A stretch of DNA of 24,561 bases. It comes from a virus. The notes beneath the pieces are model-generated. The model worked only from the letters and a program-made list of their open reading frames with translations, was not told where the DNA came from and did not search any database. The position numbers and the translations under genes were made by a program. The stretch lies in the IMG/VR virus record IMGVR_UViG_3300024358_000329, positions 1 through 24,561 of that record, one strand, 5' to 3'. Positions 523 to 18,705 of the stretch are shown here, one piece after another (positions within the stretch are counted from its first letter, which is position 1; each line of letters begins with the position of its first letter).

Positions 523-695
523 TAATTTTTACCCCATTGCACCTTAAGCCAAATTCTTTCCATTATATAATGTACCGCTGTTAGAATAATATGAATAAGA
601 ACAGCATCGCTTAACCCTGTCCAAATTGCAGTAATCAATAACGCAATAATTCTATAACTTACTGTCCGTACTACTGTTCTTGTTTTGGTCTCCAT
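522..695 (-). CDS. DUF2061-like small membrane protein
   Basis: A 57-aa protein starting METKTRTVVRT, followed by SYRIIALLITAIWTG and a second hydrophobic stretch around residues 30-45 (LIHIILTAVHYIMERIW). The short charged N-terminus, two closely spaced membrane helices and an HYxxERxW-type end match the DUF2061 family as I know it; function unknown. I chose the ATG at 693-695, which overlaps the queE stop as TGATG and has a GGGG-containing ribosome site upstream, over a GTG four codons earlier. It is probably in the inner membrane. Its place directly after queE is likely just operon packing. Confidence 0.7.
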   Translation of the reverse strand: METKTRTVVRTVSYRIIALLITAIWTGLSDAVLIHIILTAVHYIMERIWLKVQWGKN

Positions 696-1555
696 CAGGT
701 TCCCCACTCGTTCTTGAAGAGAGGCACTTGTAGTCGATCACTGTACCGCCATCCTTTTCGCATTGCCATTTCTGCCACGTTACGATTGTTAAGGGTATAC
801 ACGCTGTCAACTCCACCAACAGGCATAATATAAACAGGGCCCGTAAAACCTGCCTCGCGATATTCCTTAACAGCTCGTTCTGCATCTTTCAAATCCTCCT
901 CAGAGGCTACTACAAATTTTAAGTATACATAACCCCAGTTTTGATAATCACAAACTATTTCTGGACGAATAGCATCTTCCCACTTTTCTCCAGAGCAAGG
1001 TAATTTAGCACTAACACTAAATGTAATTTCTTTGTTGTAATCTGGATGAGGCATTGTCCATTCTAACAAATAATCTTTAAAACTTTCTGACAGTTCTTGG
1101 GTGCCGTTTGTTTCAAAGGTAATTTCTTTTAGACCTGTCATCTTGGGATGACGCAACAAGTCTGGATAGGCACGTTGCCAACCTAGCAAAGGTTCACCAC
1201 CTGTGATAACTAGGTGTTCGTCCTGCCATTCGTTGTGTGGAAGAATTTCCATAATGCGTTCAGCAATAGCATCGCTAGTTAGCATTGGACTTAGGTCTTT
1301 AAACTCTGGATGCCAACTAGCATAGCTATCACAACCTGTAGATACCAACGGCAATGCTTCGTATTTTTCGTAAGGAGATCTCTTGTGTTGAATAACAATA
1401 TCATCTGCCTCTGTGCTTAGTTCACCTCTAGGCATACCAAACCCGGCACACTTGAAGTTGCAACCAAATATACGTAAGAAAACAGAAGGCACACCCATAT
1501 AGCGGCCTTCACCTTGAATGCTGTAAAACAGCTCTGCGATTTTAATTTTACTCAT
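695..1555 (-). CDS. queE: 7-carboxy-7-deazaguanine synthase (QueE), radical SAM
   Basis: QueE is a radical-SAM enzyme converting 6-carboxytetrahydropterin to 7-carboxy-7-deazaguanine (CDG). The 286-aa protein opens with the family signature EIFYSIQGEG-like (here AELFYSIQGEG, residues 7-17) and GVPSVFLRIFGCNFKC. It has the SAM-binding ITGGEPLL (around residue 117) and FETNGT. The Fe-S cysteines are atypical: C32 and C36 are present, but the third, usually two residues further on, is replaced by Phe; the best candidate is C75 in TGCDSYASW, after an insertion of about 36 residues. It partners with FolE and QueD-like proteins in this window and supplies the base used by DpdA. The start overlaps the upstream gene by 8 nt (ATGAGTAA). 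Confidence 0.92.
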   Translation of the reverse strand: MSKIKIAELFYSIQGEGRYMGVPSVFLRIFGCNFKCAGFGMPRGELSTEADDIVIQHKRSPYEKYEALPLVSTGCDSYASWHPEFKDLSPMLTSDAIAERIMEILPHNEWQDEHLVITGGEPLLGWQRAYPDLLRHPKMTGLKEITFETNGTQELSESFKDYLLEWTMPHPDYNKEITFSVSAKLPCSGEKWEDAIRPEIVCDYQNWGYVYLKFVVASEEDLKDAERAVKEYREAGFTGPVYIMPVGGVDSVYTLNNRNVAEMAMRKGWRYSDRLQVPLFKNEWGT

Positions 1556-1766
1556 TGTTTATTATACCTTTTTTTACAAAATTTGTCAAGTCTTCTTTGA
1601 TCAAACTCCAAGTGCCATCTTCGTTATCGATCCAAATTAAATTATCGCCTTCTTTCCAACCTGCTTCTTTTAATAGGTCTGGAGGAAATGGTAATATACA
1701 ATCTCCTGTTTCAGGATCTTCTTCAACATTAAGGGTCCAACTTTTAGATTCTATTTTTTTCGTCAT
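1548..1766 (-). CDS. AbrB/SpoVT-like small protein
   Basis: A 72-aa protein with the pattern of the AbrB/MazE swapped-hairpin fold: a beta strand, a Pro-rich turn (PFPPDLLKEAGWKEGD, residues 27-42), then two strands with IWIDNEDGTWSLIKED. The phrase 'LLKEAGWKEGD + W' is characteristic of AbrB-type domains, which usually act as small DNA-binding regulators or antitoxins. No toxin partner is adjacent, so a regulatory role for the operon is an inference only. It overlaps queE by 8 nt and its own start lies inside the end of the upstream membrane-protein gene (23-nt overlap), so the three are tightly coupled. Confidence 0.6.
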   Translation of the reverse strand: MTKKIESKSWTLNVEEDPETGDCILPFPPDLLKEAGWKEGDNLIWIDNEDGTWSLIKEDLTNFVKKGIINNE

Positions 1767-1947
1767 TTTCTTTCTTCCAATGCTCGTAGTGTAATTTTCT
1801 ACACTCTTCTTTAACTTTATTGGGAATATCCGGATGCCATTCTGCCATTCCGCAATCGTATATTCTTGTTTGAGGTTGCTTAGAACCTACTAAAATTAAA
1901 ATAAAAAATATAGCAAAAATTGAAACTACAACAAGAATGTTTTTCAT
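1744..1947 (-). CDS. Small single-pass membrane protein, unknown function
   Basis: A 67-aa protein with one N-terminal hydrophobic segment (residues 4-21, LVVVSIFAIFFILILVG) and a short charged tail beginning RIYDCGMAEWHPDIP and continuing with a Lys/Glu-rich helix that contains one more Cys. The layout suggests an N-terminal anchor or uncleaved signal with the tail in the periplasm. The YDC..AE..PD.P..V...C pattern resembles small proteins I have seen repeatedly in marine phages, but no function is known to me. ATG at 1945-1947 overlaps the preceding TGA (ATGA). Confidence 0.65.
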   Translation of the reverse strand: MKNILVVVSIFAIFFILILVGSKQPQTRIYDCGMAEWHPDIPNKVKEECRKLHYEHWKKENDEKNRI

Positions 1948-2144
1948 ATGTATTCACTTACTAGTATCTTGCACATAAGTCCATCGTGTTCATTATGAAA
2001 ATGAAATTTCATACATTCTGTACTAACTTCAGTTCTATATCTATCTCCTGGCAATCCAAATTTTTCTACAATAGTTGCAGTTACATTATTCCAAAATGGC
2101 ATATTATTTGTTTTTTCGTTCCACGGAACATTAATGGTTACCAT
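1944..2144 (-). CDS. Hypothetical protein
   Basis: A 66-aa soluble protein starting MVTINVPWNEKTNNMPFW, with a mixture of short strands and FGLPGDRY, ending KFHFHNEHDGLMCKILVSEYI. No recognised domain. The start ATG (2142-2144) is embedded in the last codons of the HIT gene (7-nt overlap) and its stop overlaps the next ATG, so it is translated as part of the same run. Codon use is as AT-rich as that of its neighbours. Confidence 0.6.
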   Translation of the reverse strand: MVTINVPWNEKTNNMPFWNNVTATIVEKFGLPGDRYRTEVSTECMKFHFHNEHDGLMCKILVSEYI

Positions 2145-2530
2145 TTACGATAGTTTCCTTTTTCTGGAATAACGTGACGAACACCTCCTGTGGGGTCTTC
2201 CATATCACCTTTACGTCTTGGAATAAGATGAACGTGTGGCCAAGGAACTGTTTGTCCAGCAGCTGGGCCGTAATTCATACCTATGTTAAATCCGTCCCAT
2301 TCGCCTTGTTGTACTCTCTTAATACCGTCTCTAACTGCATCTTCAAAACAATCCATTAGAACAGCAACGGTATTATATTTAGGTACAAATAAAAGATGAC
2401 CCTCTGTTACCGGATAGATATCACGAAATACTTTTACGTGATAATCTTCTTCTATAAGTTCTGTCCACGGCGCTTTAGAATCTTCGATAAAACTAGGCTC
2501 GGCGGGAAATATTTTGTTTATATCGGTCAT
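2138..2530 (-). CDS. HIT-family nucleotide hydrolase-like protein
   Basis: A 130-aa HIT-superfamily protein, the usual length for the family. Seen: the N-terminal VFRDIYPVTEGHLLFVPKY segment (residues 34-52), FNIGMNYGPAAGQTV (82-95) and the signature PHVHLIPRR (98-106). In the canonical H-x-H-x-H motif the middle His is catalytic; here the middle and last are H99 and H101, but the first is Trp (W97). HIT proteins hydrolyse or transfer nucleotides from dinucleotide or AMP-linked substrates; the substrate here is unknown. It sits after two SGNH-like genes and starts by ATGA overlap. Confidence 0.88.
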   Translation of the reverse strand: MTDINKIFPAEPSFIEDSKAPWTELIEEDYHVKVFRDIYPVTEGHLLFVPKYNTVAVLMDCFEDAVRDGIKRVQQGEWDGFNIGMNYGPAAGQTVPWPHVHLIPRRKGDMEDPTGGVRHVIPEKGNYRKW

Positions 2531-3117
2531 TTTTCTATAAGTTCCTTTATTATATTATATACAATTTTATTACCGTTGTCAGTATAATGATTTGTGTAAC
2601 CTCTTTCTTTGCTCCAAAGAGTTGAAAAATCTGTATGATATTTTTCTATGGCTAATTCGGCAGCAATCTCTAAATGCGAAATACTAATATATTTTGTTTT
2701 TATTAAATTGTTTATTTTGTCTCGAATTAAATTATAGATATCAATTTGATATTCGTCGTCGTAGTGATATCTAAAAAATAGTTTAGCTGACAATAGATTA
2801 AAGTTAAAAGGATTAAAATGATTTTCGATATCGTGATATATTAAGTCACAATTTTTTCTAAATCCTGATTTTTGTATAGGATGATTTTTTGTATGAACCC
2901 TGCTAGGACTTGTATGACTGACTATCACAACATCAAATGATGTCGTGTTTACACTTTCTATTTGTTTTAGAATTTTGTATTCGCTTATTCCAGGTTCTGA
3001 TAAATTAGTAACATCGTAATCTTTAGCCAACAGATTAACCCAGCCTGTGTTTGAATCAGGCCAAACTGCTGAAAAACTATCTCCAGCAATTAATATTTTT
3101 TTAAACTGGTTAACCAT
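2527..3117 (-). CDS. SGNH/GDSL hydrolase-like protein (second of a pair)
   Basis: A 196-aa protein beginning with a Rossmann-like strand and the nucleophile block of SGNH hydrolases, ILIAGDSFSAVWP (GDS at residues 12-14). A Gly block follows at LSEPGIS (G43), and near the C-terminus an Asn-His pair (N176-H177 in TNHYTDNGN) could supply the catalytic His. The usual Asn block is not clear (VIVSHTSPSR instead). SGNH enzymes are esterases or acyl hydrolases acting on lipids or acylated sugars; the target is unknown. The gene is very AT-rich (about 22-23% GC in 2701-2820 by hand count) and overlaps the upstream paralogue-like gene by 28 nt. Confidence 0.65.
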   Translation of the reverse strand: MVNQFKKILIAGDSFSAVWPDSNTGWVNLLAKDYDVTNLSEPGISEYKILKQIESVNTTSFDVVIVSHTSPSRVHTKNHPIQKSGFRKNCDLIYHDIENHFNPFNFNLLSAKLFFRYHYDDEYQIDIYNLIRDKINNLIKTKYISISHLEIAAELAIEKYHTDFSTLWSKERGYTNHYTDNGNKIVYNIIKELIEK

Positions 3118-3917
3118 GGAATATAATGTTTGGCAACTAATTCGTGATAGCTAGTATTGTAGTGTTCTTTATCTTCAATAAGAAAATTTTCGTGATTAAA
3201 CCCTAATTGCTTTGTAAATGATTGAACTGTTTTAGAAGCAATTCTAGTATTTTTAAGTTTTCCGTAATAGTCAAACTGCGTTGGAAATTTTAATCTATCT
3301 GTAAAATTAAACAGATGTAAAGGCACTCCGTGGTCTGCGCAGATATTATCCCAGGTGTAAACACAATTTAAAAATTCTCTTTTTTCTACATAGGTATTAA
3401 GTTCGAAAAACAATTTAACCTGCATATATGTATGTTTTCGAAGATCCGGAACAATTAATCCATCAGTAGCACTAAATTCAACACCCGGATAATTTCCGTA
3501 ATCGTCGTAAGTTGACTTGTTTAATAGCTGCATTGATTTTTCTCTAACAATTGCATCCATATATCTATGAATATTTTCATCGTCTGAATCGCACTTGAAA
3601 GTGAAATAATCAGATGGAATACAATCTTCTTTAGAAATATCGTCGTATGCTATAATGAATCTATTAAATGATGCTAGACAAATAAAGACCTCATCAATGT
3701 CATCGTACAAATTAAACATCGATATAAGCCAATCGGTATATAATCTGTTTGATGCACCAGACATAGCATAAACAATGACTGGCTTATTGTTTAATTTACT
3801 GTAAATTTCTGCATAGTTGTTATCGTTCCATTGACTAAAACTGCCTACGCCTTTACTGTTCAAAACTGAAGTGTAGCCCATTGTGTGACTATCTCCAATG
3901 AATAAAGTTCTACCCAT
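3090..3917 (-). CDS. SGNH/GDSL hydrolase-like protein (first of a pair)
   Basis: A 275-aa protein starting MGRTLFIGDSHTMGY, with the GDS nucleophile block (residues 8-10) directly followed by His. A second block, YAMSGASNRL, fits the Gly block, and HYNTSYHELVAKHY near the C-terminus could provide the catalytic His. It shares its domain type with the downstream 196-aa protein but little obvious sequence, so the pair may be old duplicates or two separate acquisitions. The ATG at 3915-3917 overlaps the previous stop as TGATG; an upstream in-frame TTG is less likely. No signal peptide is visible, so it should be cytoplasmic or virion-borne. Confidence 0.65.
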   Translation of the reverse strand: MGRTLFIGDSHTMGYTSVLNSKGVGSFSQWNDNNYAEIYSKLNNKPVIVYAMSGASNRLYTDWLISMFNLYDDIDEVFICLASFNRFIIAYDDISKEDCIPSDYFTFKCDSDDENIHRYMDAIVREKSMQLLNKSTYDDYGNYPGVEFSATDGLIVPDLRKHTYMQVKLFFELNTYVEKREFLNCVYTWDNICADHGVPLHLFNFTDRLKFPTQFDYYGKLKNTRIASKTVQSFTKQLGFNHENFLIEDKEHYNTSYHELVAKHYIPWLTSLKKY

Positions 3918-4138
3918 CAATATCCCTTATTTTCTTTTGGTAGAGAATCTTCGCGAATAACAAATTCTCTCCCACCTAGGCTACCAACAAACGCTCTAGT
4001 ATTCTCTTTATATACCATTTTAATTTTTAAAGTTTGAAAAGCAACTTCTAAAAATGCTTTAGGTTTGTAACCTAAAACGTGCATATCAAAATCTTTACCT
4101 GCATCTGTGCAATGTACCTTAACCTGTGCGTCGATCAT
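3917..4138 (-). CDS. Hypothetical protein
   Basis: A 73-aa protein read from MIDAQVKVHCTDAGKDFDMHV. The ATG (4136-4138) overlaps the phosphoribosyltransferase TGA as ATGA; a longer frame starting at a TTG would run 36 nt into that gene and is not needed. It is a small alpha/beta protein with LGYKPKAFLEVAFQTLKIKMVY in the middle and REFVIRED near the end. No known domain is recognised. Its position between a phosphoribosyltransferase and an SGNH gene gives no clear role. Confidence 0.6.
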   Translation of the reverse strand: MIDAQVKVHCTDAGKDFDMHVLGYKPKAFLEVAFQTLKIKMVYKENTRAFVGSLGGREFVIREDSLPKENKGY

Positions 4139-4626
4139 TTTGCCCACCAATCTTCGTAAGGAAATTCTATCCAAACATCGTTTTCTGCCTTATTGACCTC
4201 AAATCCAACATAGTCCATTTTAACATTACACCCGCTGGCAAGATTATCTACAATTACAGCAAAGCGTACACTATTGTTCCAAATCATATCCCAACGCTCA
4301 TCGTGAGGAAAGCAACTGCTACGCCAATCGTCCATAATCCAATTAAGTGTAGCACCGCTATCGTTAATATCGTCTACAATAAGAATCTGTTTACCTGCAA
4401 ATGCATCATCAGCCATCCATAGATTGCTTTCACTTGCTGTATGATCACGTAGGCTTACATTGAGTGAGTGCATTGGCACATCTAACCAATGACTAATCAT
4501 AACAGCAGGGAGCAAACCTCCCCGTGTAAGTCCTACAATGTAATCAGGTCGCCAAGTACCAAAGCTACGGCAAATTTTACTAACGTTTACTGTAAATTCA
4601 TTAAAATTAATTATGTGCTTGTTCAT
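4135..4626 (-). CDS. Xanthine/guanine-type phosphoribosyltransferase
   Basis: A 163-aa type I phosphoribosyltransferase. Seen: the diphosphate-binding loop VGLTRGGLLPAV (residues 31-42), the PRPP loop ILIVDDINDSGATL (81-94) with the two acidic residues of the family, and near the C-terminus DVWIEFPYEDWW, which resembles the purine-contacting 'W-I/V-E-x-P-W' segment of E. coli Gpt. Such enzymes join guanine, xanthine or hypoxanthine to PRPP to give the nucleoside monophosphate. Next to a base-exchange DNA modification pathway that releases free guanine, a recycling role is attractive but inferred. The start lies 20 nt inside the upstream cupin gene. Confidence 0.85.
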   Translation of the reverse strand: MNKHIINFNEFTVNVSKICRSFGTWRPDYIVGLTRGGLLPAVMISHWLDVPMHSLNVSLRDHTASESNLWMADDAFAGKQILIVDDINDSGATLNWIMDDWRSSCFPHDERWDMIWNNSVRFAVIVDNLASGCNVKMDYVGFEVNKAENDVWIEFPYEDWWAK

Positions 4627-5044
4627 ATCGTGTTTTTAAATATTGTTCGTGTTGTACCCATTTACCGTTAACATCAAATCCCCATTCACGTTGTTTAGGG
4701 CCTGGCATAAAGATTGTCCAACATTCTACGCCCGGTTCTAATTCTACACGATGAAAACTTTTTGCCTTACAAATTCTAAAGTGTCCAGGTCTTCTCCAAA
4801 AGCGACCTTCTGGAGTAGTTTCCCAATAACCACCTTTTAGAATAAGTGTGGCATAAGGCCAGGGATGATCGTGAAGATCATCTGGATCACCTTTTAAAAA
4901 CTTGTGTAGGAAAATGTTAAATGGAAAACGGTCTCTATCTTTTAGAAATAGATAGTAGCGTTCTAAATATGGTTCGTCAGCTTCACGATCCATAACAATA
5001 CGTTTACGACCCATACGTTCTAAGAGATTAAGAAACCATTTCAT
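4607..5044 (-). CDS. Cupin-fold protein
   Basis: A 145-aa protein with cupin features: LHDHPWPYATLILKGGYWE (H58 and H60 as likely metal ligands on the first cupin motif), then RPGHFRICKAKSFHRVEL (H98 in the second motif), and a C-terminal strand-rich part with CWTIFMPGP. Cupins of this kind can be dioxygenases, isomerases or simple metal-binding proteins; no substrate can be deduced. The ATG at 5042-5044 forms an ATGA overlap with the upstream stop and is preferred over a TTG six codons earlier. Confidence 0.7.
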   Translation of the reverse strand: MKWFLNLLERMGRKRIVMDREADEPYLERYYLFLKDRDRFPFNIFLHKFLKGDPDDLHDHPWPYATLILKGGYWETTPEGRFWRRPGHFRICKAKSFHRVELEPGVECWTIFMPGPKQREWGFDVNGKWVQHEQYLKTRYEQAHN

Positions 5045-5259
5045 ACACGATCCTTTAACCAAGCATCAACTGTTGCTTCTGCTTCTTCTTGGGTAACTGC
5101 ATACGCATAAATCCAATAGCAATCGTCTTTGCCCTTAATATCAAAAGGTACAGGACCATTAAACAGAATGCCATCTTCTAGCATACGTTTTACTTCAAAC
5201 TTCTTTAAATTTTTAGCACGATTAATTAAATCGTTAGCCATATCTACGGAATTACTCAT
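5041..5259 (-). CDS. Hypothetical protein
   Basis: A 72-aa protein, MSNSVDMANDLINRAKNL, with a long N-terminal helix and then a strand-rich section containing GPVPFDIKGKDDCYWIYAYAV, ending with an acidic helix (TQEEAEATVDAWLK). The pattern suggests a small alpha/beta fold, but I know no family. Its start and stop both use ATGA overlaps with folE and the cupin gene, so it is co-translated with folE. Confidence 0.65.
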   Translation of the reverse strand: MSNSVDMANDLINRAKNLKKFEVKRMLEDGILFNGPVPFDIKGKDDCYWIYAYAVTQEEAEATVDAWLKDRV

Positions 5260-6005
5260 CGCGGTGCAAACTCCTGTTGTAGTTTAATGTTATCAAAGAA
5301 TTCCTTCTTTGTACCTGGATCATCTTTAAACGCACCTTTCAATACTGTAGTCTGCGTTAAAGAACTATGTGCCATAATACCACGGTTTTCACAACAACCG
5401 TGAGTGGCTTGGATGTAAACACCGAGGTCGGATGCAGCAGTGGCACGTTCTATTTCTCTAGCAATATCGTTGGCTAGTTCTTCTTGTAAGGTACCGCGAC
5501 GAGCGCACCACTGAGCAATACGAGTGTACTTAGACAAACCAATAAGTTTTTGTGCGGCGATGATGCCAATGTAAGCGACACCACTAACGGGCTGATGATG
5601 ATGACTGCACATAGAGCGCAACTCACTACGTACCACCAACATACCTTCGTAGCGATCTTCTGAGTCATTTGGAAATGCTGTTGCGCTTGGTGATGGGTCA
5701 TATCTACCTGCCATAATTTCGTTGAAGTACATCTTAGCCAGTCGACGTGCTGTACCTTTTGAGTTAGGATCTGTTTCTCGATCGATTAGCAAACGATCAA
5801 GAACTAGTTCAAATGCTTCAGTTGCTTCTTCAATTAAGATTTCTTTATCTTCTTCGCTGACATAATCACTGATATTGTCACCAGCCCAAAAACGTTTGCC
5901 TTCGCGTTTCATTTTAAAGCGAAGATGATCGCCTAAGTATGCTTCTTCATAGCCACCATCGCCTGCCATAGCGTCTAGTGCTGTTTCTTGTTTTTTTAAT
6001 TTCAA
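5256..6005 (-). CDS. folE: GTP cyclohydrolase I (FolE)
   Basis: FolE converts GTP to dihydroneopterin triphosphate, the first step of both folate and 7-deazaguanine synthesis. The 249-aa protein carries DPNSKGTARRLAKMY (residues 79-93), the Zn site CSHHHQPV (C133, H136) and THGCCENRG (C204) and the active-site stretch IGLSKYTRIAQWCARR. A 50-residue N-terminal extension precedes the catalytic core. The best start is TTG at 6003-6005, preceded by a GGAG site at 7-nt spacing; the next ATG (5969) has no visible ribosome site. In this window it most plausibly feeds QueD/QueE and DpdA rather than folate. Confidence 0.93.
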   Translation of the reverse strand: MKLKKQETALDAMAGDGGYEEAYLGDHLRFKMKREGKRFWAGDNISDYVSEEDKEILIEEATEAFELVLDRLLIDRETDPNSKGTARRLAKMYFNEIMAGRYDPSPSATAFPNDSEDRYEGMLVVRSELRSMCSHHHQPVSGVAYIGIIAAQKLIGLSKYTRIAQWCARRGTLQEELANDIAREIERATAASDLGVYIQATHGCCENRGIMAHSSLTQTTVLKGAFKDDPGTKKEFFDNIKLQQEFAPR

Positions 6006-6044
6006 TTAAATTCTCCGAGTTAATGTCGTGGATGACATAATAAG

Positions 6045-7118
6045 TTATTTTAGCATCTCTAAGAGATTATCGCAACTAAAATAATTCTTAGTTAAACGAT
6101 CTACCTGTTTATTTAGGCGAGGTAGATAGGATTCGTAATTTTCCATATAATGGACAATTCGATCTACTATTGCTCCTCTATGTGCCCTATAAGAATTAAA
6201 AGATTCTGTCCACTCTGAAGGATAAGAAAAATCTTTTAATGCCATTTCACTGTAACTGAGTCTGTCTGGAACCATAGGAATAGTTTTAGTAATAGCACCT
6301 TCGTACCAACTAATTCCAAGTGTTTCTTGTAGGTTAGCACTAAACACTAGTTTAGATTCGCCTAGCATATTATGATATTCGTTTTTTGTAAGTTGACGTT
6401 CTTGACAAACAATAAACTCATATTGAGGAAGTTGTTCTTTTAAGTCATAAAATATATCGACTTGTTTCTCTGGAGCAATACGATGCGGGAAAAGAATAAT
6501 GTTTTTCTTTTCCATTTCGCTGTACATACTTAAGGTATCTACCATATATTCCATTGGCCAACCTGTACGCATAATTTTATGTTTGGCAAACTCTCTAACA
6601 ATGTTGGAGTTTTCATAACCTAACAGATTTTTACAGAACATTTCGATATGAAATTCTGTAGCGAACCAATTATAATCGATTGCGTGATAGAATGCTTTTT
6701 CTGAGTGTCTAACCCAAGGAGTGTCACCAATAAGTCGACCTAAGAAATCTTGAGGATCATATGATCCGGCGTGCCACAATGCGTGAATTTTTACAGGAAT
6801 CTGTAAAAGCTCACTCATATATTTTAAGTTTATGATGCCAGGGTGCCAAGCATCAGTAAAGATAAAGTGATCATTAGGAGCCACTGATCCATTGCAAAAC
6901 AACCGACCCATTTGCTCAACTTGACTAGACTTATATATATTGGTGCCACCAAAATTAAGAAAAGCGCCAGGAGTGGTTGCACTAGGAATATCCGTAGGGC
7001 CAGATATAATTTGAACATCGTGTCCTCTCTTTTTAAGAAGTGCAGGAAGGTGGGTTTTCCACTCGCCTGTGTAACGAGTTTCTACTGCCTCAAGGTCGAC
7101 TAGGAAAACCCGTGCCAT
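6045..7118 (-). CDS. GT-B fold glycosyltransferase
   Basis: A 357-aa protein starting MARVFLVDLEAVETRYTGEW, with an N-terminal Rossmann-like domain containing a Gly-rich turn (NFGGTN). The C-terminal domain has FPHRIAPEKQVD (residues 210-221), like the 'GR...EKG' strand of GT4 enzymes, and ETLGISWYEGAI (265-276), like the donor-binding E-x7-E motif. This indicates a nucleotide-sugar-dependent transferase. The acceptor is unknown: phage GTs may modify DNA bases, virion proteins or host surface sugars. I chose the ATG at 7116-7118, just after the upstream TGA; a longer frame reaching 7319 runs through the neighbouring gene and is not credible. Confidence 0.8.
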   Translation of the reverse strand: MARVFLVDLEAVETRYTGEWKTHLPALLKKRGHDVQIISGPTDIPSATTPGAFLNFGGTNIYKSSQVEQMGRLFCNGSVAPNDHFIFTDAWHPGIINLKYMSELLQIPVKIHALWHAGSYDPQDFLGRLIGDTPWVRHSEKAFYHAIDYNWFATEFHIEMFCKNLLGYENSNIVREFAKHKIMRTGWPMEYMVDTLSMYSEMEKKNIILFPHRIAPEKQVDIFYDLKEQLPQYEFIVCQERQLTKNEYHNMLGESKLVFSANLQETLGISWYEGAITKTIPMVPDRLSYSEMALKDFSYPSEWTESFNSYRAHRGAIVDRIVHYMENYESYLPRLNKQVDRLTKNYFSCDNLLEMLK

Positions 7119-7119
7119 A

Positions 7120-7389
7120 TCAACGACCTCTGCGATCGTAGTTATTGTTTCGACCTTCGTAGTTATTACTACGACCTTCAAAACGTGGCTTATTACCTTG
7201 GTAAGGTCTACGAGGACGCTTACTTGCCAAGTAGGCTTGGTAATTTGCAGAATCTTTGCGATAAAGATCTGCAGGATTAAAATCACGCAACTCAAATCTG
7301 CAGAAATCGAGATACGCATCTAGGTCATCAAAGACCTTAACAACATCAGGACGACTTTCAAAGTAATCGATGTCCTTGTAGTTTTTCAT
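7120..7389 (-). CDS. Small protein with Arg/Gly/Asn/Tyr-rich tail
   Basis: An 89-aa protein. Residues 1-55 form a compact helical part starting MKNYKDIDYFESRPDVVKVFDDLDAYLDF-like sequence, then NPADLYRKDSANYQAYLA. Residues 58-89 are disordered and positively charged, with repeats of the type RRPYQG, NKPRFEG, RSNNYEG, RNNNYDRRGR. Such RGG/RNY tails commonly bind RNA or single-stranded DNA or drive condensation; this is inference. No enzyme motif is visible. It lies between the queD-like gene (11 nt) and the glycosyltransferase (1 nt), starting at the ATG at 7387-7389. Confidence 0.7.
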   Translation of the reverse strand: MKNYKDIDYFESRPDVVKVFDDLDAYLDFCRFELRDFNPADLYRKDSANYQAYLASKRPRRPYQGNKPRFEGRSNNYEGRNNNYDRRGR

Positions 7390-7400
7390 CTTACTTTCCT

Positions 7401-7790
7401 TTAATATTTGATGAATGAACCATTTTCTCCGTCTTCGGAGACCTCAATCCAAACCTCGCGGCCTGGATACTTATTGGAGATAGCGTCATACAAATCGTCT
7501 GACATCATCTCGCAACTCTTAAAGTCTAAACTAAGTGTAGCATCTTTATAAAGATTCTGCAACCATCGTTTAAACTGAATAAACTCAATATCGCGGTCAT
7601 TATGTGTTACGCTAATCCAAACTTTAAAGTGAAAGATATGACGATGTGGATAGCCAAGGAAGCTAACATCATACTCGTCACCTGTAGCAAGGCTAGAATC
7701 TGTAAGAGCCGCTGGATATTTGTGCATACCCTCTTTTTGAAATGTAACCCAAATCATTTTATTGGGTCTTTGGTCTTGCCTAATAATCAT
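7401..7790 (-). CDS. queD: QueD / 6-pyruvoyl-tetrahydropterin synthase-like protein
   Basis: A 129-aa T-fold protein in the position expected for the second step of deazaguanine synthesis (dihydroneopterin triphosphate to 6-carboxytetrahydropterin). Seen: H23 (MHKYPAA) and the paired H49/H51 in GYPHRHIFHF, matching the three zinc-binding His of the family, followed by THNDRDIEFIQFKRWL, which matches the 'xIIDFxxLK' helix. Odd: the catalytic Cys four residues before the HxH motif is Leu (L45), and the Asp-His pair is D89-F90 (LSLDFKSC). It may use other residues or do a changed reaction. It overlaps the upstream gene by ATGA. Confidence 0.78.
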   Translation of the reverse strand: MIIRQDQRPNKMIWVTFQKEGMHKYPAALTDSSLATGDEYDVSFLGYPHRHIFHFKVWISVTHNDRDIEFIQFKRWLQNLYKDATLSLDFKSCEMMSDDLYDAISNKYPGREVWIEVSEDGENGSFIKY

Positions 7791-8014
7791 ACTGATAACA
7801 GTCCTTTACACAATTCACCGACTTCCTCTTTAGTTAGATGAAAATTGTAGATACTTGTATCGTCAACATCACCGTCTTTATTTAGGCTTTCTTGAATAAA
7901 ATTTACAGCATATAGACCTTTGGGTGCAACGCACTCCCAAGATTCTACACGCATACGGAATCCAGAATTTTCTTTAATTGTAAATTCTTTAATTTTTAAA
8001 TCAGGGTGTCTCAT
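7787..8014 (-). CDS. Hypothetical protein
   Basis: A 75-aa protein, MRHPDLKIKEFTIKENSGF, mostly beta strands (FRMRVESWECVAPKGLYAVNFIQESL) and a C-terminal helix (LTKEEVGELCKGLL). No known domain is recognised. Both ends use ATGA overlaps with the neighbouring genes, so it is expressed with the queD-like gene. A structural or binding role in that group is possible, but nothing in the sequence shows it. Confidence 0.65.
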   Translation of the reverse strand: MRHPDLKIKEFTIKENSGFRMRVESWECVAPKGLYAVNFIQESLNKDGDVDDTSIYNFHLTKEEVGELCKGLLSV

Positions 8015-8364
8015 CTCATTGCCTCCATCATAACAATTTTACTTAAGCGATCGCCTAGGTCTTCATTTTCAGTAACTACGTGCATAGTGTTATGATTGCG
8101 ATCAGTCTTTCGATCGTAACCTCGAGTCTCTACAACGTACCCACCACTGGCTTTGTAAATCTGTAAACGAATACCGTCAGATTGAAGACGATCAGCTTCT
8201 ACAGCCAAGGTTGGTACTGCATCCATATCGTCATTGTCGCTATTGAGCCAATTACGGATACGCTGTTTAAATGTAAGTTTCATTTCTTTCCTTTTTACTC
8301 TGCGAGCAGGGCGAATAGCTGATTGTTTAGCAGTCGCATAGTTTATTGCCTGTCCAGTACTCAT
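8011..8364 (-). CDS. Hypothetical protein (alternative start at 8283)
   Basis: A 117-aa frame if read from the ATG at 8362-8364 (ATGA overlap with the upstream gene). A second ATG at 8281-8283 (MKLTFKQRIRNWLN) has a much stronger ribosome site (AAAGGAAAG just upstream), and relatives I recall from marine phages begin there, giving 90 aa. The first 27 residues are very basic (RPARRVKRKE) and may be an optional extension. The core contains ADRLQSDGIRLQIYKASGGYVVETRGYDRKTDR, a beta hairpin-rich stretch. Function unknown. Confidence 0.65.
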   Translation of the reverse strand: MSTGQAINYATAKQSAIRPARRVKRKEMKLTFKQRIRNWLNSDNDDMDAVPTLAVEADRLQSDGIRLQIYKASGGYVVETRGYDRKTDRNHNTMHVVTENEDLGDRLSKIVMMEAMR

Positions 8365-8894
8365 TTAATAATTTCATCCTTGCCATATTGATCCCAATCT
8401 GTGAAGCGATCTCTTCCCAGAAGGTCCTGTAGGTTATGGCACCATACCCCAGGGTTAGTTGCACAAAAATCTTTGTCGTCGATCTTTAGTGTAGCATTAT
8501 AACCAAGTTGATTGATATAAGGTAATTTTACACTAATCTGCGGAATAAATCTACGCTTTTCGGTTAAACCGCTCTCGAGCAATCCTTCCGTTTCCTTAAC
8601 ATCAAAGTCAAGCGTACACCAGAAACCGTCTTCTGCATCTAGACAAACGTAGATCATATCTTCCCACGGACGCCAAGTTTCTACATCATTAACGCCATTA
8701 GTTTGGAAACTTTGATTAGCACCAAAATAGATATGCTTGCAGTTATGATTACGTGCAAGTTCCATAATAACATATGGGTCGTGAACACCTACAACAAATA
8801 AGGTCTTCATTCCAAATGCAGGAGTGCGTTCAATCTCCACACCAGTGAAGAATGTAATACCTTCGCTGACTCCGTCTGTGTAATCACGCTTCAT
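8361..8894 (-). CDS. Conserved hypothetical protein of the queD neighbourhood
   Basis: A 177-aa soluble protein. Hydrophobic strands alternate with helices (GMKTLFVVGVHD, CKHIYFGANQSF, FWCTLDFDVKE, IPQISVKLPYI, NATLKIDDKDF), suggesting an alpha/beta fold. Five Cys are scattered with no cluster-binding spacing, and there is no Walker or PP-loop motif, so it is not a QueC. I do not recognise a named family. I recall similar proteins near queD/queE in marine phages, and it lies a few genes from queD here, so a link with base modification is possible but unproven. Starts by ATGA overlap. Confidence 0.68.
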   Translation of the reverse strand: MKRDYTDGVSEGITFFTGVEIERTPAFGMKTLFVVGVHDPYVIMELARNHNCKHIYFGANQSFQTNGVNDVETWRPWEDMIYVCLDAEDGFWCTLDFDVKETEGLLESGLTEKRRFIPQISVKLPYINQLGYNATLKIDDKDFCATNPGVWCHNLQDLLGRDRFTDWDQYGKDEIIK

Positions 8895-9457
8895 TCATTT
8901 TCCTTAAAGTCAATAACATTGCCATCTTCGTCGGCTTGGATAATACGACGATAACCGTTTTCGCCTTCAATCACAATAGGACCCCAAATCCACATTTCGC
9001 TATCACTAGAAGACCAATCTCTGCTTTCTAGTGCATCGTAATAGCCATCTTCTTCCATTGCTTCTTCAATTTCTGCTTGCTCATCTTCGTCAATGTCATC
9101 TGGCCATTCTACGTCTGCCCAACAACCGTCAAAGGTTGATTCGAGCTCAACTTCTTCAATATTATTATAGTAGCAGTTGTTAATATCTATGCTGTCTTTA
9201 GATCCATCACCGCCTGGTACATAATCAAACTCAAACTTTGGCGGGTTTCCATCGTTAGTATAAACAATCCAAGATCCTCCACGCCAACCAGTTTTGTGAA
9301 TAATTTCTTGTCCGTCTTTAGTAAAGTGTTCGTGTTCTTCAATAGACTTTTTGTAGTATGTACTTACAGTCCAAGCGGTAAGTTCTTTCTTTTCTGTAGT
9401 TTCGTCGCTACTATATGATGGTGAGGTATCGTCTGATGAAAAAGGCCAAGTTGCCAT
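8891..9457 (-). CDS. Acidic hypothetical protein
   Basis: A 188-aa, strongly acidic protein with a Ser/Asp-rich N-terminus (WPFSSDDTSPSYSSDETTE), a strand-rich middle (GWRGGSWIVYTNDGN) and a cluster of Asp/Glu around residues 115-140 (WPDDIDEDEQAEIEEAMEEDG). The C-terminal part, WIWGPIVIEGENGYRRII, looks like a small beta sandwich. Strong negative charge is common in DNA-mimic phage proteins and in many structural proteins, but no specific resemblance is visible. It starts two bases after the stop of the small Cys-rich gene at 9460-9630. Confidence 0.65.
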   Translation of the reverse strand: MATWPFSSDDTSPSYSSDETTEKKELTAWTVSTYYKKSIEEHEHFTKDGQEIIHKTGWRGGSWIVYTNDGNPPKFEFDYVPGGDGSKDSIDINNCYYNNIEEVELESTFDGCWADVEWPDDIDEDEQAEIEEAMEEDGYYDALESRDWSSSDSEMWIWGPIVIEGENGYRRIIQADEDGNVIDFKENE

Positions 9458-9459
9458 AA

Positions 9460-9630
9460 TTATTTTTCCTTTTTAGCAAATAATCTTTTAATGGACTGAA
9501 TTAAATTATAGTATCTAAAATGATAATTGTCAAGAAATGCTGAGCTCAAAAGAGGTTCTCTATGCGGACATCTTCCTTGATTCCAATCACAATTTGGTTG
9601 AATTTGTAAATTACAGGTTTGGCATTTCAT
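9460..9630 (-). CDS. Small Cys-rich (zinc-ribbon-like) protein, 56 aa
   Basis: Found by reading the apparent gap between two genes on the minus strand. The frame starts at the ATG at 9628-9630, overlapping the upstream TGA as ATGA, and stops at TAA 9460-9462, two bases before the next ATG. It reads MKCQTCNLQIQPNCDWNQG, then RCPHREP, and ends in a basic tail (IKRLFAKKEK). Four Cys (C3, C6, C14, C21) with a His (H23) give a CxxC...C...CPH layout expected of a small zinc-binding knuckle. The overlaps on both sides make it a real gene. Nucleic-acid binding is plausible only. Confidence 0.75.
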   Translation of the reverse strand: MKCQTCNLQIQPNCDWNQGRCPHREPLLSSAFLDNYHFRYYNLIQSIKRLFAKKEK

Positions 9631-9809
9631 TCTTCCAACCCCGCCTGTTTTGCCCTTAGCATTTCGATCTCATCTTTTAAAAAGAGTCGTTTCTTTTTAA
9701 GTTCGTGAATATTCTCTTCCCCAAATATTCCTGTTCTTTCCATATCGTCTACTTTTTTATCAAGCATACGATGTGCTTCTTCCAAGTGCTTAATTCTATT
9801 TTCGTACAT
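9627..9809 (-). CDS. YdcH-like (DUF465) small coiled-coil protein
   Basis: A 60-aa, all-helical protein, MYENRIKHLEEAHRMLDKKVD then ERTG and a second helix with LKKKRLFLKDEIEMLRAKQ. The pattern 'R...LEEAH..LD..V..ME....' followed by 'LKK.RL.LKDEI' matches the DUF465/YdcH family of short helical hairpins, whose function is unknown. I chose the ATG at 9807-9809 because the longer frame enters the HNH gene. Spacing to that gene is one base. It may act as a small adaptor or oligomerisation factor. Confidence 0.75.
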   Translation of the reverse strand: MYENRIKHLEEAHRMLDKKVDDMERTGIFGEENIHELKKKRLFLKDEIEMLRAKQAGLEE

Positions 9810-9810
9810 A

Positions 9811-10212
9811 TTAAACCTCTTCAAATAAAGTTGTGAACATCTTATTTGTATAAGAATATTTCTTTTTGTGATCTCCAAACATTTTACTTTTTTCGTTATG
9901 GCAATTTGCGCACAAGATTTTTAAATTGTCTGAAGATGTATTGCCTTTATCACCGTCGTGATGATCTATGGTAAGACTTCTATACGGATCTCTACAAAAC
10001 CATCCAAGGTATCCTGATTGGTTTTCGCATCCTTTTGATTGCATCCATTCGTCCACTTCAAACCTTAACACAGTTCTATGAAGATTGCAAAAAGTTTTCC
10101 ATTTCCAGGTAGGTGTACCATCTTTTTTAACATAACCTTTATGGTACCCTACTTGAGTATTGCAACCGGGTAAACTACATTTAGGAGCGTGATTCCTAGA
10201 TAGAGATCGCAT
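9811..10212 (-). CDS. HNH endonuclease
   Basis: A 133-aa protein with an N-terminal zinc-binding part (C12, C17, then C42 and H45) and a C-terminal HNH core: LTIDHHDGDKGNTSSDNL (H84/H85, N96) and LCANCHNEKS (C101, C104, H105). HNH enzymes cut DNA and in T4-like phages are often free-standing homing endonucleases. Its position directly downstream of dpdA could mean chance invasion or a functional pairing with the modification. The last eight residues (FTTLFEEV) resemble the C-terminal clamp-binding peptide of the gp43 encoded here. ATG at 10210-10212. Confidence 0.85.
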   Translation of the reverse strand: MRSLSRNHAPKCSLPGCNTQVGYHKGYVKKDGTPTWKWKTFCNLHRTVLRFEVDEWMQSKGCENQSGYLGWFCRDPYRSLTIDHHDGDKGNTSSDNLKILCANCHNEKSKMFGDHKKKYSYTNKMFTTLFEEV

Positions 10213-10220
10213 TTTAAGCC

Positions 10221-11777
10221 TTATTCAACTTTTAAATTATCCAACTCTTCGTCTTCTCTGTCGTCAGTCCAAGGAACTTCAACAGTTCCATCTTCTTTGA
10301 CTTCATCAAAAAGACTATCTACAATGTTAGTAACACCACCACGTAGACGAGCACCTTCTAAGTTTTGTAAAAATCCAAGACGTTCTGCTTCAGCAATCAT
10401 TTCAAATGCTTCTTCTTTAGTCTTGAGTTCAAACAATTCTTCAACAAATCTATTAAAATACAGAATGTTGCGCGGTACCCATTCTGAGTATTCATCACTT
10501 TTATCTGCATCTTTAACCTTGCGCCAGTGTCTCCAATCTGGTCTGTGACTTGCATATTCAATATCTGCTAGATTATTAGATCTTTGAACAGCACGAATGT
10601 GACATTCAACATTATGACCCATCATTAGAGCATAGGCAAAACTATCCCAAGAAGTTTTACCTTCTTTACCAATCTTGTTTAACATTCCCGGTGCATAGTG
10701 GCAAATATCAGCGACTGTAAGTCTGCGACCAAAATCGGATTCGAAAGGAAAAGGTATATCGTGCCGTCTGGCAAGACTCTTATTGTCCGGGGCTTTATCC
10801 ATGATAACAGAGAATCGCTTATTGGTATGTTGGGCGTTAGTATATACCAATCCGTGAGCTGTTGCGATGAAAGGTGATGCGCAGTCAAAGGAAATTGTGA
10901 AGTTTTCATTTACGTGCTTTCTAATTTGACGCTGAATGCTTGTTAGATAACAAGCCCAGTCCAACTGTGCAGTACCCAAGAAGTGCATCCAATCCTTGCC
11001 TTCTAGCATACCGTCAAACCGCATAGTAATCAGTCTACGTAGTGTAATAGGCATCTTACACATATTAGCACCACCCATAGCCCATCCTTCTGCGGCTCTG
11101 TCTCCGTACTTGCTAGTATCGGAGTATTCTTTTACACCCTGGTACCACGCTTCTGCGTTTTCCCAGTTACTACCCTGTAAAACATTTAACAGTTTAGTAC
11201 CGCCATCTTTTGCACCTAAACGATTTTGAATAAAATATTCATTGTTAAATCTTGTTTTATCTAAACAATCTTGAAATGATTTTAAACCTGTCTTTGGACT
11301 ATGAATATGGTCACAAGCCCAGGTCGGAACGTCTAACATCATTGACCAATCAGCAGTAACATCTAGCCAAGTTAAGATCTTTTCGCGAGTTTTATTTGCT
11401 TCTGAGCCTTCAAAATTTTGCCAGTCGAACTTAATAACACCTTTACCGATCTGATAACCGCCTGAATCACCTAATATCATAGTAGCGTTACGATCACGTT
11501 GTTGAATCATAGATTCTTGTGTGATACTTTTATTAATGTCTAACTGTGCGTGACCTGCTGAATACAACGCATATTTGTAATAAAAATAGCCTTGCTCTGG
11601 ATTCAAGAAGTTCATACCTTCAATGCCGCGATCAAATCCTTGAGGAACGCGATCGTCTGGAATAAATTTTTCTAAACGTTGTTTTGCAACGTATGTAGAA
11701 TAGAAAGAACTAATAGCAGGTAAGTAAACCGCATAGTCTTTCTGTAATGGTGTTAAATCAACTGGTTGTTGTTTCAT
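10221..11777 (-). CDS. dpdA: DpdA-like DNA 7-deazaguanine transglycosylase
   Basis: A 518-aa relative of tRNA-guanine transglycosylases. The TGT active-site landmarks appear in order: LGDSGGYQ (102-109, D104 as the first catalytic Asp), LDVPTW (149-154), LQGSNW (200-205), GWAMGG (231-236), HFLGTAQLDWA (265-275) and FDCASPF (297-303, D298 as likely nucleophile). The length exceeds the about 375 aa of bacterial TGT and fits the DpdA family, which exchanges guanine in DNA for a 7-deazaguanine base; phage members protect viral DNA from restriction. FolE, QueD-like and QueE in the same window supply the base. It starts 20 nt inside the upstream gene. Confidence 0.88.
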   Translation of the reverse strand: MKQQPVDLTPLQKDYAVYLPAISSFYSTYVAKQRLEKFIPDDRVPQGFDRGIEGMNFLNPEQGYFYYKYALYSAGHAQLDINKSITQESMIQQRDRNATMILGDSGGYQIGKGVIKFDWQNFEGSEANKTREKILTWLDVTADWSMMLDVPTWACDHIHSPKTGLKSFQDCLDKTRFNNEYFIQNRLGAKDGGTKLLNVLQGSNWENAEAWYQGVKEYSDTSKYGDRAAEGWAMGGANMCKMPITLRRLITMRFDGMLEGKDWMHFLGTAQLDWACYLTSIQRQIRKHVNENFTISFDCASPFIATAHGLVYTNAQHTNKRFSVIMDKAPDNKSLARRHDIPFPFESDFGRRLTVADICHYAPGMLNKIGKEGKTSWDSFAYALMMGHNVECHIRAVQRSNNLADIEYASHRPDWRHWRKVKDADKSDEYSEWVPRNILYFNRFVEELFELKTKEEAFEMIAEAERLGFLQNLEGARLRGGVTNIVDSLFDEVKEDGTVEVPWTDDREDEELDNLKVE

Positions 11778-18194: not shown

Positions 18195-18385
18195 ACTTGA
18201 CTAAAGGGATTAATTTTTTCGTCGGAGTCAATGCTTTGTTTTTCTGGATATACTAGATACGTGTCTACACCAGCAATACCTCCCATAAACATTCCTTCTT
18301 TCATTTTATGAATAGGATCGTTGGGATCTAAGACGCAGTCTTCTTCACTGGTTTGTACATTATATGTTACACGATATTGTTTCAT
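18191..18385 (-). CDS. Hypothetical protein
   Basis: A 64-aa protein, [20 protein letters not shown], with strands on both sides of a Gly/Met-rich turn ([22 protein letters not shown]) and a short polar tail. No known domain is recognised. ATGA overlaps on both sides couple it to the Fe-S carrier gene and the GH19 gene. Confidence 0.6.
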
Positions 18386-18705
18386 ACAGCAAAACTACTC
18401 CCACATCCACAGGTTGTTTGAGCATTTGGATTTTTAATTACAAATTGACTGCCCATTAACTCTTCTTTATAATCTATGACAGCACCTTGTAGGTATTGCA
18501 TACTCATAGAATCAACAAGAACTTTAAAATTTTCTAAAGGAATTTCGAAATCATCTTCGTTTTGTTCCTCGTCAAATGTAAATCCATAACTGAAACCAGC
18601 ACAGCCTCCGCCTTGTACAAAGGTTCGAAGAGCTAGTTTAGGATTGTTTTCATCAATCAATAAATCTACGATTTTACTTTTAGCTGATTCAGTTATCTCA
18701 ATCAT
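18382..18705 (-). CDS. A-type iron-sulfur carrier (IscA/ErpA/HesB family)
   Basis: A 107-aa protein of the usual family length. Seen: [13 protein letters not shown] (C35) and the C-terminal TTCGCGSSF (C99, C101), the three conserved cysteines that hold an Fe-S cluster, plus the [19 protein letters not shown] strand-helix region. A-type carriers deliver clusters to client enzymes such as radical-SAM proteins. QueE in this window needs a 4Fe-4S cluster and could be a client, but the gene lies in the late-like block, so other roles such as a virion metal protein are possible. Start overlaps the upstream TAA (TAATG). Confidence 0.92.

What the first reader, a model, noticed from the sequence alone, without database searches (positions are those of the whole stretch)
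695..11777. Phage-encoded DNA 7-deazaguanine modification route without QueC
FolE, a QueD-like protein, QueE and DpdA are all encoded on one strand within 11 kb. In characterised phages this set replaces guanine in DNA with 7-deazaguanine bases and blocks host restriction. QueC (CDG to preQ0; a PP-loop SGGxDS ATPase) is absent from the window. The modified base may therefore be CDG itself, a derivative made by an unknown enzyme, or preQ0 via host QueC. dCDG has been reported in phage DNA, so this is testable.
Basis: partly seen in the sequence, partly recalled or inferred. Interest (0 to 1): 0.75.

Follow-up and report, generated by a model that had tools for sequence, protein, structure and literature searches.

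The report
Phage cassette for modified DNA guanine
This phage fragment carries a conserved gene cassette that probably swaps guanine in its DNA for a 7-deazaguanine base and then decorates it, possibly with a sugar, which would be an unrecorded kind of DNA camouflage against bacterial defences.

Summary
In detail: QueE, FolE, a T-fold QueD-like protein and a DpdA-type transglycosylase lie on one strand, without QueC. Two inferences change. (2) The QueD-like protein is not the usual QueD: it has the QueD fold (Z 10.8), lacks the catalytic Cys, and 17 of 20 records carrying it also match canonical QueD (not the window's virus so far). In 51 distinct relatives with enough flank, DpdA is followed by this protein, an unknown protein and a GT4-like glycosyltransferase in 49. 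In three isolates the glycosyltransferase and T-fold genes adjoin a different DpdA family, DpdA2. Ten isolates with the T-fold gene lack full-length QueC; four reference phages without it have QueC (hand-picked). I infer a QueC-independent, CDG-based DNA modification that is processed further, perhaps glycosylated. Deazaguanine genes in PA5oct and QueC-less CDG phages are in print; I found no glycosylated 7-deazaguanine DNA in a limited library, and the key 2023 paper was not held. New variant of a known kind.

The parts
10221..11777 (-). DpdA-like DNA guanine transglycosylase (divergent family)
   Evidence: hhalign to the nt-1 DpdA2 family: prob 93.65, E 2e-7, 193 columns. DSGG[YFL]Q in 129 of 130, H-x-LG in 130, [IV][ST][FY]D in 125; CxCxxC in none of 130. 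433 of 434 candidate IMG/VR stretches encode a relative.
8361..8894 (-). p8361, unknown 177-aa protein, near-constant cassette member
   Evidence: In 49 of 51 distinct loci with at least 9.5 kb downstream. Also in the PA5oct group, best E 1e-37, and directly upstream of DpdA2 in Acidovorax phage ACP17, E 1.7e-25. AF2 pLDDT 81; only weak fold matches, best Z 6.4, QueE 6.0.
7401..7790 (-).
   Evidence: phrog_17812 E 2.1e-31. AF2 model matches QueD. H23, H49 and H51 in 106 of 106; Cys four residues before HxH in 0 of 106. Found near a separate annotated QueD/PTPS in four other phages.
6045..7109 (-). GT4-like glycosyltransferase (start chosen by homology; the longer ORF runs to 7319)
   Evidence: Strict E-x7-E pattern in 30 of 34. 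Pfam Glycos_transf_1 in 4 of 12 relatives, best 5.7e-4; homologs in ACP17, BUCT-ZZ01 and X1 reach 2.5e-4, 5.5e-6 and 8e-12. Best PDB chain by sequence WlaC, E 0.21.
5256..6005 (-). FolE, GTP cyclohydrolase I
   Evidence: PF01227 E 4.8e-38; in 40 of 51 loci
4607..5062 (-). cupin-like protein by eye (PHROG name 'cysteine dioxygenase')
   Evidence: phrog_4786 E 3.3e-40; in 40 of 51 loci
4135..4626 (-). phosphoribosyltransferase, purine type
   Evidence: PF00156 E 5.2e-13; nearest NCBIfam model xanthine phosphoribosyltransferase 4.7e-11, below its cut-off; in 39 of 51 loci
2138..2530 (-). HIT-domain protein
   Evidence: PF01230 E 2.6e-11; in 34 of 51 loci
695..1555 (-). QueE, 7-carboxy-7-deazaguanine synthase
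   Evidence: phrog_2076 E 7e-51; NCBIfam QueE models from 3.6e-16, below their cut-offs; in 48 of 51 loci

Best explanation
A DNA hypermodification cassette of large tailed phages. FolE, a QueD (canonical; encoded elsewhere in most relatives, or by the host) and QueE make 7-carboxy-7-deazaguanine (CDG); a divergent DpdA exchanges guanine in phage DNA for this base or a derivative. The T-fold QueD paralog, p8361 and the GT4-like glycosyltransferase take the place that QueC and the amidotransferases have in other 7-deazaguanine phages: they process and decorate the base, most simply by adding a sugar. The phosphoribosyltransferase may recycle the guanine that DpdA releases. Status: gene identities, the predicted T-fold, linkage and module swap are shown by computation; chemistry, order of steps and the sugar are inferred.
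For: DpdA identity (controls 136). Order DpdA-p8361-Tfold-GT-(FolE-cupin-PRT-HIT)-QueE: T-fold, GT and p8361 each in 49 of 51 distinct loci. PAC2, a PA5oct-group phage whose DpdA is 42% identical, keeps DpdA, GT, T-fold, PRT and QueE in one block. GT and T-fold adjoin a DpdA2 gene in ACP17, BUCT-ZZ01 and X1, whereas DpdA2 phage nt-1 has QueC instead. T-fold against QueC: 10 T-fold isolates, none with full-length QueC; 4 isolates without T-fold, 4 with it. T-fold is not the only QueD-type gene in 17 of 20 records. A carboxyl group as handle for phage DNA hypermodification has a precedent on another base (PMC12783734, abstract and passages).
Against: The window's own virus has a QueC-family gene, as do G048, G060 and G061, which also have DpdA; D479 has a partial QueC match over the cut-off and X1 one below it. 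In G001, G002 and G035 no other QueD was found, so there the T-fold protein could still be the QueD. The 14-isolate table is small and hand-picked. Five of ten T-fold isolates have no GT homolog. A weak GT homolog in PhiXhv-12 lies away from annotated deazaguanine genes. Relatives share ancestry, so synteny in the 51 loci is partly inheritance. No chemistry was measured.
Confidence: 0.45

Rival explanations
1. Ordinary preQ0/ADG-type modification: QueC (the phage's own distant QueC-like gene or the host's) converts CDG, DpdA inserts preQ0 or ADG, and GT, T-fold and p8361 serve something else or only tune the pathway.
For: QueC-family gene with SGGLDS and a C-terminal four-Cys motif in the same virus. 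35 of 43 candidate viral stretches encode a relative of it, G001 itself among them; DpdA is in 8 of 22 such records searched, G001 included. The QueC model rings in 12 of 14 control bacteria and archaea, so hosts often have it.
Against: No QueC match in G002 and G031-G035 (210-353 kb), nor in the complete PAC2 (286 kb) and Phosso (469 kb) genomes; no full-length QueC in the 10 T-fold isolates. None of the nine cassette families was found within the flanks of the 35 QueC-like loci. QueC-like records of 114-208 kb without a DpdA match: G051, G053, G064, G065.
Confidence: 0.25
2. Plain dCDG or dDG: the T-fold paralog acts on CDG (for example a decarboxylase of the DpdL kind, recalled from Cui et al. 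2023) or helps DpdA use it; the GT acts on another target.
For: T-fold occurs without a GT homolog in phiST, RHph_I1_18, Ahp1_CNU-2021, Bakedbeans and D479, near FolE in each. It is present where full-length QueC is absent across the 14 isolates.
Against: In the five isolate lineages with a strong GT match it lies next to DpdA and/or T-fold, hard to explain if unrelated. Whether phrog_17812 is DpdL could not be checked: the paper was not held.
Confidence: 0.2
3. The genes raise queuosine in host tRNA rather than modify DNA.
For: Hutinet et al. 2019 propose this for phages with pathway genes but no DpdA (PMC6884629 section 8).
Against: A DpdA-type transglycosylase heads the cassette; in PAC2 it follows annotated DNA polymerase and clamp genes, as it does by eye in the window.
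Confidence: 0.05

Closest known systems
DpdA2 7-deazaguanine system of Vibrio phage nt-1 (Hutinet et al. 2019, PMC6884629, section 8 and passages seen)
   Same: FolE, QueE and a distant-TGT transglycosylase with the same motif order
   Different: nt-1 has full-length QueC and no phrog_17812 and is not among the GT hits; the window's DpdA is a separate family by HMMER
PA5oct/MIJ3/Paride-type jumbo phages of P. aeruginosa (PAC2 examined)
   Same: DpdA 42% identical, GT, T-fold, PRT and QueE in one block after DNA polymerase and clamp; a 'deazaguanine synthesis/incorporation system' in PA5oct is in print (PMC7824862, passages)
   Different: No FolE, cupin or HIT match within the 37 kb around DpdA; p8361 about 28 kb away
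dCDG/dDG phages and DpdL (Cui et al. 2023, recalled; not held)
   Same: QueC-less route with CDG or its decarboxylation product as DNA base (recalled)
   Different: No glycosyltransferase recalled; relation of DpdL to phrog_17812 unknown
Mycobacterium phage Bipper (PMC6884629 section 8)
   Same: DpdA pathway lacking only QueC; the authors say it could carry the QueC substrate CDG
   Different: T-fold/GT module not mentioned in that section; not tested here
5-carboxymethylcytosine-glycine phages (PMC12783734, abstract and passages)
   Same: Carboxyl group on a DNA base used as handle for further modification
   Different: Cytosine, not 7-deazaguanine; amide ligase, not GT

Membership tests
DpdA (DNA guanine transglycosylase, TGT superfamily) | Homology to a known DpdA subfamily | tested here: met
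   hhalign vs DpdA2 families prob 93.65, E 2e-7 and 94.32, E 9.9e-8; five negative controls at 0.1-0.2. HMMER to nt-1 DpdA2 not significant, E 2.3; to ACP17 DpdA2 weak, E 0.0017
DpdA (DNA guanine transglycosylase, TGT superfamily) | Both TGT-type aspartate motifs (DSGG and ISFD/ISYD; roles recalled) | tested here: met
   129 and 125 of 130
DpdA (DNA guanine transglycosylase, TGT superfamily) | Linked 7-deazaguanine biosynthesis genes | tested here: met
   QueE in 48, FolE in 40 of 51 loci
DpdA (DNA guanine transglycosylase, TGT superfamily) | Inserts 7-deazaguanine into DNA | not testable with these tools
   needs LC-MS
QueD (6-carboxytetrahydropterin synthase), for ORF 7401-7790 | T-fold | tested here: met
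   Predicted model, Z 10.8 to QueD and 11.0 to a PTPS
QueD (6-carboxytetrahydropterin synthase), for ORF 7401-7790 | Three conserved His (zinc-type; assignment recalled) | tested here: met
   H23, H49, H51 in 106 of 106
QueD (6-carboxytetrahydropterin synthase), for ORF 7401-7790 | Catalytic Cys four residues before HxH (position recalled) | tested here: not met
   0 of 106
QueD (6-carboxytetrahydropterin synthase), for ORF 7401-7790 | Is the only QueD-type gene of the genome | tested here: inconclusive
   Of 20 records with phrog_17812, 17 also have a PTPS match at E up to 0.01, 16 of them above the cut-off; G001 (the window's virus, partial), G002 and G035 have none in the DNA held
GT4 glycosyltransferase | E-x7-E motif | tested here: met
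   30 of 34 by a strict pattern
GT4 glycosyltransferase | Curated family match | tested here: inconclusive
   window member Glycos_transf_1 E 0.11-0.13, below cut-off; X1 homolog 45.5 bits over cut-off 26.4
QueC (gene in the same virus, outside the window) | PP-loop SGGxDS and C-terminal four-Cys motif, curated match | tested here: met
   sequence; Pfam 28.2 bits over cut-off 22 for the protein, 19.3 bits, under the cut-off, in the six-frame search; phrog_1550 1.3e-19
QueC (gene in the same virus, outside the window) | Makes preQ0 from CDG | not testable with these tools
   divergent; located among tail-type genes
DpdL (CDG decarboxylase, recalled) | Sequence identity with the published protein | not tested
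   paper not held; no paper holding both 'DpdL' and '7-deazaguanine' in the library

The most novel reading that the evidence does not exclude
A large group of uncultured and cultured phages carries a sugar on a 7-deazaguanine base in DNA: CDG (or a derivative made by a Cys-less QueD paralog in place of QueC) is inserted by DpdA and glycosylated by a dedicated GT4-type enzyme, a hypermodification chemistry not yet recorded for DNA.
Probability: 0.38. Interest if true: 0.85.

Novelty: new variant of a known kind. Interest (0 to 1): 0.62.

Why it matters
7-deazaguanine DNA systems are known, but a swappable module (QueD paralog plus glycosyltransferase, in place of QueC) shared by two DpdA families would mean a further layer of DNA camouflage, in over a hundred distinct environmental sequences (106 distinct T-fold and 96 distinct GT proteins) and in cultured jumbo phages of P. 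aeruginosa. It gives a candidate role to phrog_17812, phrog_10773 (here identified as DpdA2) and several genes annotated 'hypothetical' in the PA5oct group, and one LC-MS experiment on available isolates can test it.

Tried and rejected
QueC absent from this virus: rejected, G001 has a QueC-family gene. The 7401-7790 ORF as the usual QueD of these pathways: rejected for most records, open for G001, G002 and G035. ORF 4607-5062 as the QueD-like ORF: rejected, phrog_4786. p8361 as a QueE relative: only a weak structural lead (Z 6) and no profile support (prob 0.1). QTMAN/GTDC1 kinship of the GT: a recalled resemblance, no Pfam support. ORFs next to the T-fold gene in Ahp1_CNU-2021 and D479 as DpdA: alike by eye, not supported (prob at most 3.1). 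X1 ORF L318:9024-9455 as p8361: not supported. X1 ORF with a PHVDDE motif as a PIG-L deacetylase: by eye only, no Pfam hit. Sequence searches of solved structures with DpdA, GT, T-fold and p8361 gave nothing useful. T-fold profile against four phage QueDs: no match (prob 0.5); a second such comparison failed because the file was not aligned and was not repeated. Absence of other folds from the fold lists is not taken as evidence.

Not settled: the host, the order of steps, which sugar, whether p8361 is an enzyme. An earlier count said that all QueC-like relatives lie beside a methyltransferase-looking ORF; I looked at three neighbourhoods only (L082, L278, L299).
Full report
CHECK OF THE OBSERVATION. 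The window (24,561 bases, a whole virus record) is coded mainly on the minus strand (by eye). QueE 695-1555 (phrog_2076, 7e-51) and FolE 5256-6005 (PF01227, 4.8e-38) are firm. The DpdA call rested on motifs: the 518-aa ORF 10221-11777 has no meaningful Pfam, PHROG, NCBIfam or PDB-sequence match. A profile of 130 relatives aligns with the DpdA2 family of Vibrio phage nt-1 (11 ORFs) at probability 93.65, E 2e-7, over 193 columns that bring DSGG, LQG, H-x-LG and IS[FY]D into register; five unrelated cassette families give 0.1-0.2. Results the other way: a 55-sequence profile did not find nt-1 DpdA2 (HMMER E 2.3) or 9g DpdA, and hhalign with the single proteins gave 6.0 and 0.6; HMMER to ACP17 DpdA2 was weak (E 0.0017). 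So this is a separate, distant DpdA family.

THE QUED-LIKE PROTEIN. The candidate I found, 7401-7790 (129 aa), matches no Pfam model and one PHROG of unknown function well, phrog_17812. Its AF2 model (21 sequences, pLDDT 90.1) has the T-fold order of strands and helices and matches E. coli QueD best in Foldseek (E 3.4e-4); by VIA-align QueD scores Z 10.8 (rmsd 2.5, 108 aligned) and a PTPS of P. horikoshii 11.0. Three His are invariant in 106 of 106 sequences, but none has the Cys four residues before HxH (0 of 106) that I recall as catalytic in QueD. Isolated phages ACP17, BUCT-ZZ01, phiST and RHph_I1_18 encode it near a separate annotated QueD/PTPS. Of 24 records searched, 21 have a PTPS match (20 above cut-off) and 20 have phrog_17812; 17 of these 20 have both, and the three without PTPS are G001, G002 and G035. 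So in most members it is a paralog with another job; in the window's own virus no other QueD has been found in the 134.8 kb held.

QUEC. The window is 100.000% identical over its whole length to G001:32448-57008. G001 (134,843 bases) encodes a 197-aa QueC-family protein at 18249-18842, 13.6 kb past the window's right end, with SGGLDS and a C-terminal four-Cys motif; phrog_1550 1.3e-19, Pfam QueC 28.2 bits against a cut-off of 22 for the protein, though 19.3 bits in the six-frame search. It lies among tail-type genes next to an ORF that looks like a methyltransferase by eye (no family hit). Of 43 candidate viral stretches 35 encode a relative, G001 included; 8 of 22 such records searched also have DpdA, G001 included, while G051, G053, G064 and G065 (114-208 kb) have none. 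No cassette family was found in the flanks of the 35 loci. In a set of 24 records, phrog_1550 matched in 4 (G001; G006 and G037 partially; Vibrio phage 2.275.O) and PF06508 in 3 (G001, G006, 2.275.O); there was none in G002, G031-G035 (210-353 kb), the circular complete PAC2 genome or Phosso.

THE CASSETTE. Loci, scanned and grouped by the last 150 residues of DpdA, gave 120 groups; 51 have at least 9.5 kb downstream. In these, on the same strand after DpdA: p8361 49, T-fold 49, GT 49, QueE 48, FolE 40, cupin 40, PRT 39, HIT 34; 29 show the full order DpdA-p8361-Tfold-GT-FolE-cupin-PRT-HIT-QueE; two have DpdA alone. This is partly shared descent. Against descent alone: PAC2 of the PA5oct group, with DpdA 42% identical, keeps DpdA-GT-Tfold-PRT-QueE and has p8361 about 28 kb away. 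ACP17 has QueD-FolE-p8361-DpdA2-GT-Tfold-QueE, X1 FolE-...-GT-DpdA2-Tfold-QueE, and BUCT-ZZ01 QueE-XGPRT-...-QueD-FolE-GT-like-DpdA2-Tfold-GT. Their transglycosylase, phrog_10773, is DpdA2 (hhalign 100, 5.3e-96; phrog_10773 hits nt-1 at 9.1e-213). Phosso has T-fold, GT, FolE and QueE after polymerase and clamp, its DpdA about 170 kb away. Vibrio phage 2.275.O has a DpdA of this family beside QueF, a YhhQ-type transporter, QueC, FolE, QueE and QueD, without GT or T-fold.

MODULE SWAP. Across 14 isolates (hand-picked: ten T-fold hits plus four reference phages), the ten with phrog_17812 have no full-length QueC (D479 a partial match of 32.8 bits, over the cut-off; X1 one of 16.2 bits, below it), while 2.275.O, nt-1, 9g and CP220 lack phrog_17812 and all have QueC at 156-191 bits. 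Within DpdA2 phages the contrast is direct: nt-1 has QueC, ACP17, X1 and BUCT-ZZ01 have GT plus T-fold. Against a strict rule: G001, G048, G060 and G061 have both the T-fold gene and the divergent QueC-like gene. Five of the ten T-fold isolates have no GT homolog at E 1e-5, so GT is a further, optional layer.

GLYCOSYLTRANSFERASE. The GT family has a strict E-x7-E pattern in 30 of 34 members, weak Pfam GT1 matches in the clade (best 5.7e-4, 4 of 12 members) and a clear one in the X1 homolog (8e-12). tblastn against 50,697 phage records found it in 20; 16 of these (PA5oct group 11, Phosso, ACP17 twice, X1, BUCT-ZZ01) also carry the T-fold gene; the other four are weak matches, one of which, PhiXhv-12, sits beside aminosugar-type genes with no annotated deazaguanine gene within 9 kb.

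HOW IT PROBABLY WORKS. Shown by computation: gene identities, predicted fold of the T-fold protein, linkage, module swap. Inferred from known enzymology (recalled): FolE to H2NTP, QueD to CPH4, QueE to CDG, DpdA exchange for guanine in DNA. Inferred only: T-fold and p8361 act on CDG or help load it, and GT adds a sugar. The phosphoribosyltransferase is nearest to xanthine/hypoxanthine types, as needed if released guanine is recycled; this is speculation.

LITERATURE. A deazaguanine synthesis/incorporation system in PA5oct is in print (PMC7824862, passages), as is the idea that a QueC-less DpdA phage (Bipper) could carry CDG (PMC6884629, section 8). Term searches inside papers on PA5oct (PMC6950013), MIJ3 (PMC6892783) and Paride (PMC10761892) showed no mention of deazaguanine. 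Four further bases including dCDG and dDG, and DpdL, are recalled from Cui et al. 2023, which was not held. Searches for deazaguanine with glycosyltransferase, glycosylation or hypermodification (listings, plus passages of PMC7824862 and PMC12783734) showed no report of glycosylated 7-deazaguanine in DNA; the library holds only open licences.

VERDICT. Real, conserved, and interesting for other reasons than the missing QueC: a new variant of the known DpdA systems with a QueD paralog and a glycosyltransferase. DNA modification by DpdA about 0.85 likely; QueC-independent use of CDG in the family about 0.55; a sugar on the base about 0.4.

Noticed in passing
window 695-1555: QueE of this family has 34-44 residues inserted between the second and third cluster cysteines (CxxxC-xn-[GT]CD[ST]) in 49 of 51 full-length members.
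   Followed up: partly
L082:1477-2516 (G001), L278:9519-10600, L299:9429-10594: QueC-like gene next to a methyltransferase-looking ORF (by eye) inside tail-type genes in the three neighbourhoods looked at; role unknown.
   Followed up: partly
window 9811-10212: HNH endonuclease ORF (PF01844) right after dpdA, with 12 hits of only 2 distinct sequences in the loci; looks like a homing insertion.
   Followed up: no
L322:8182-9363 (Vibrio phage Bakedbeans): T-fold protein at the C-terminus of a longer ORF of otherwise unknown kind.
   Followed up: no
L318:7158-13262 (Xanthomonas phage X1): PAPS-reductase-like gene and an ORF with a PHVDDE motif between FolE and the GT/DpdA2/T-fold block.
   Followed up: partly
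window 18382-18705, 21673-24030, 24034-24561: IscA/HesB-type Fe-S protein, ClpA/B-like ATPase (by eye) and DnaJ C-terminal domain.
   Followed up: no
phrog_10773: PHROG of unknown function; here it is the DpdA2 family of nt-1.
   Followed up: yes
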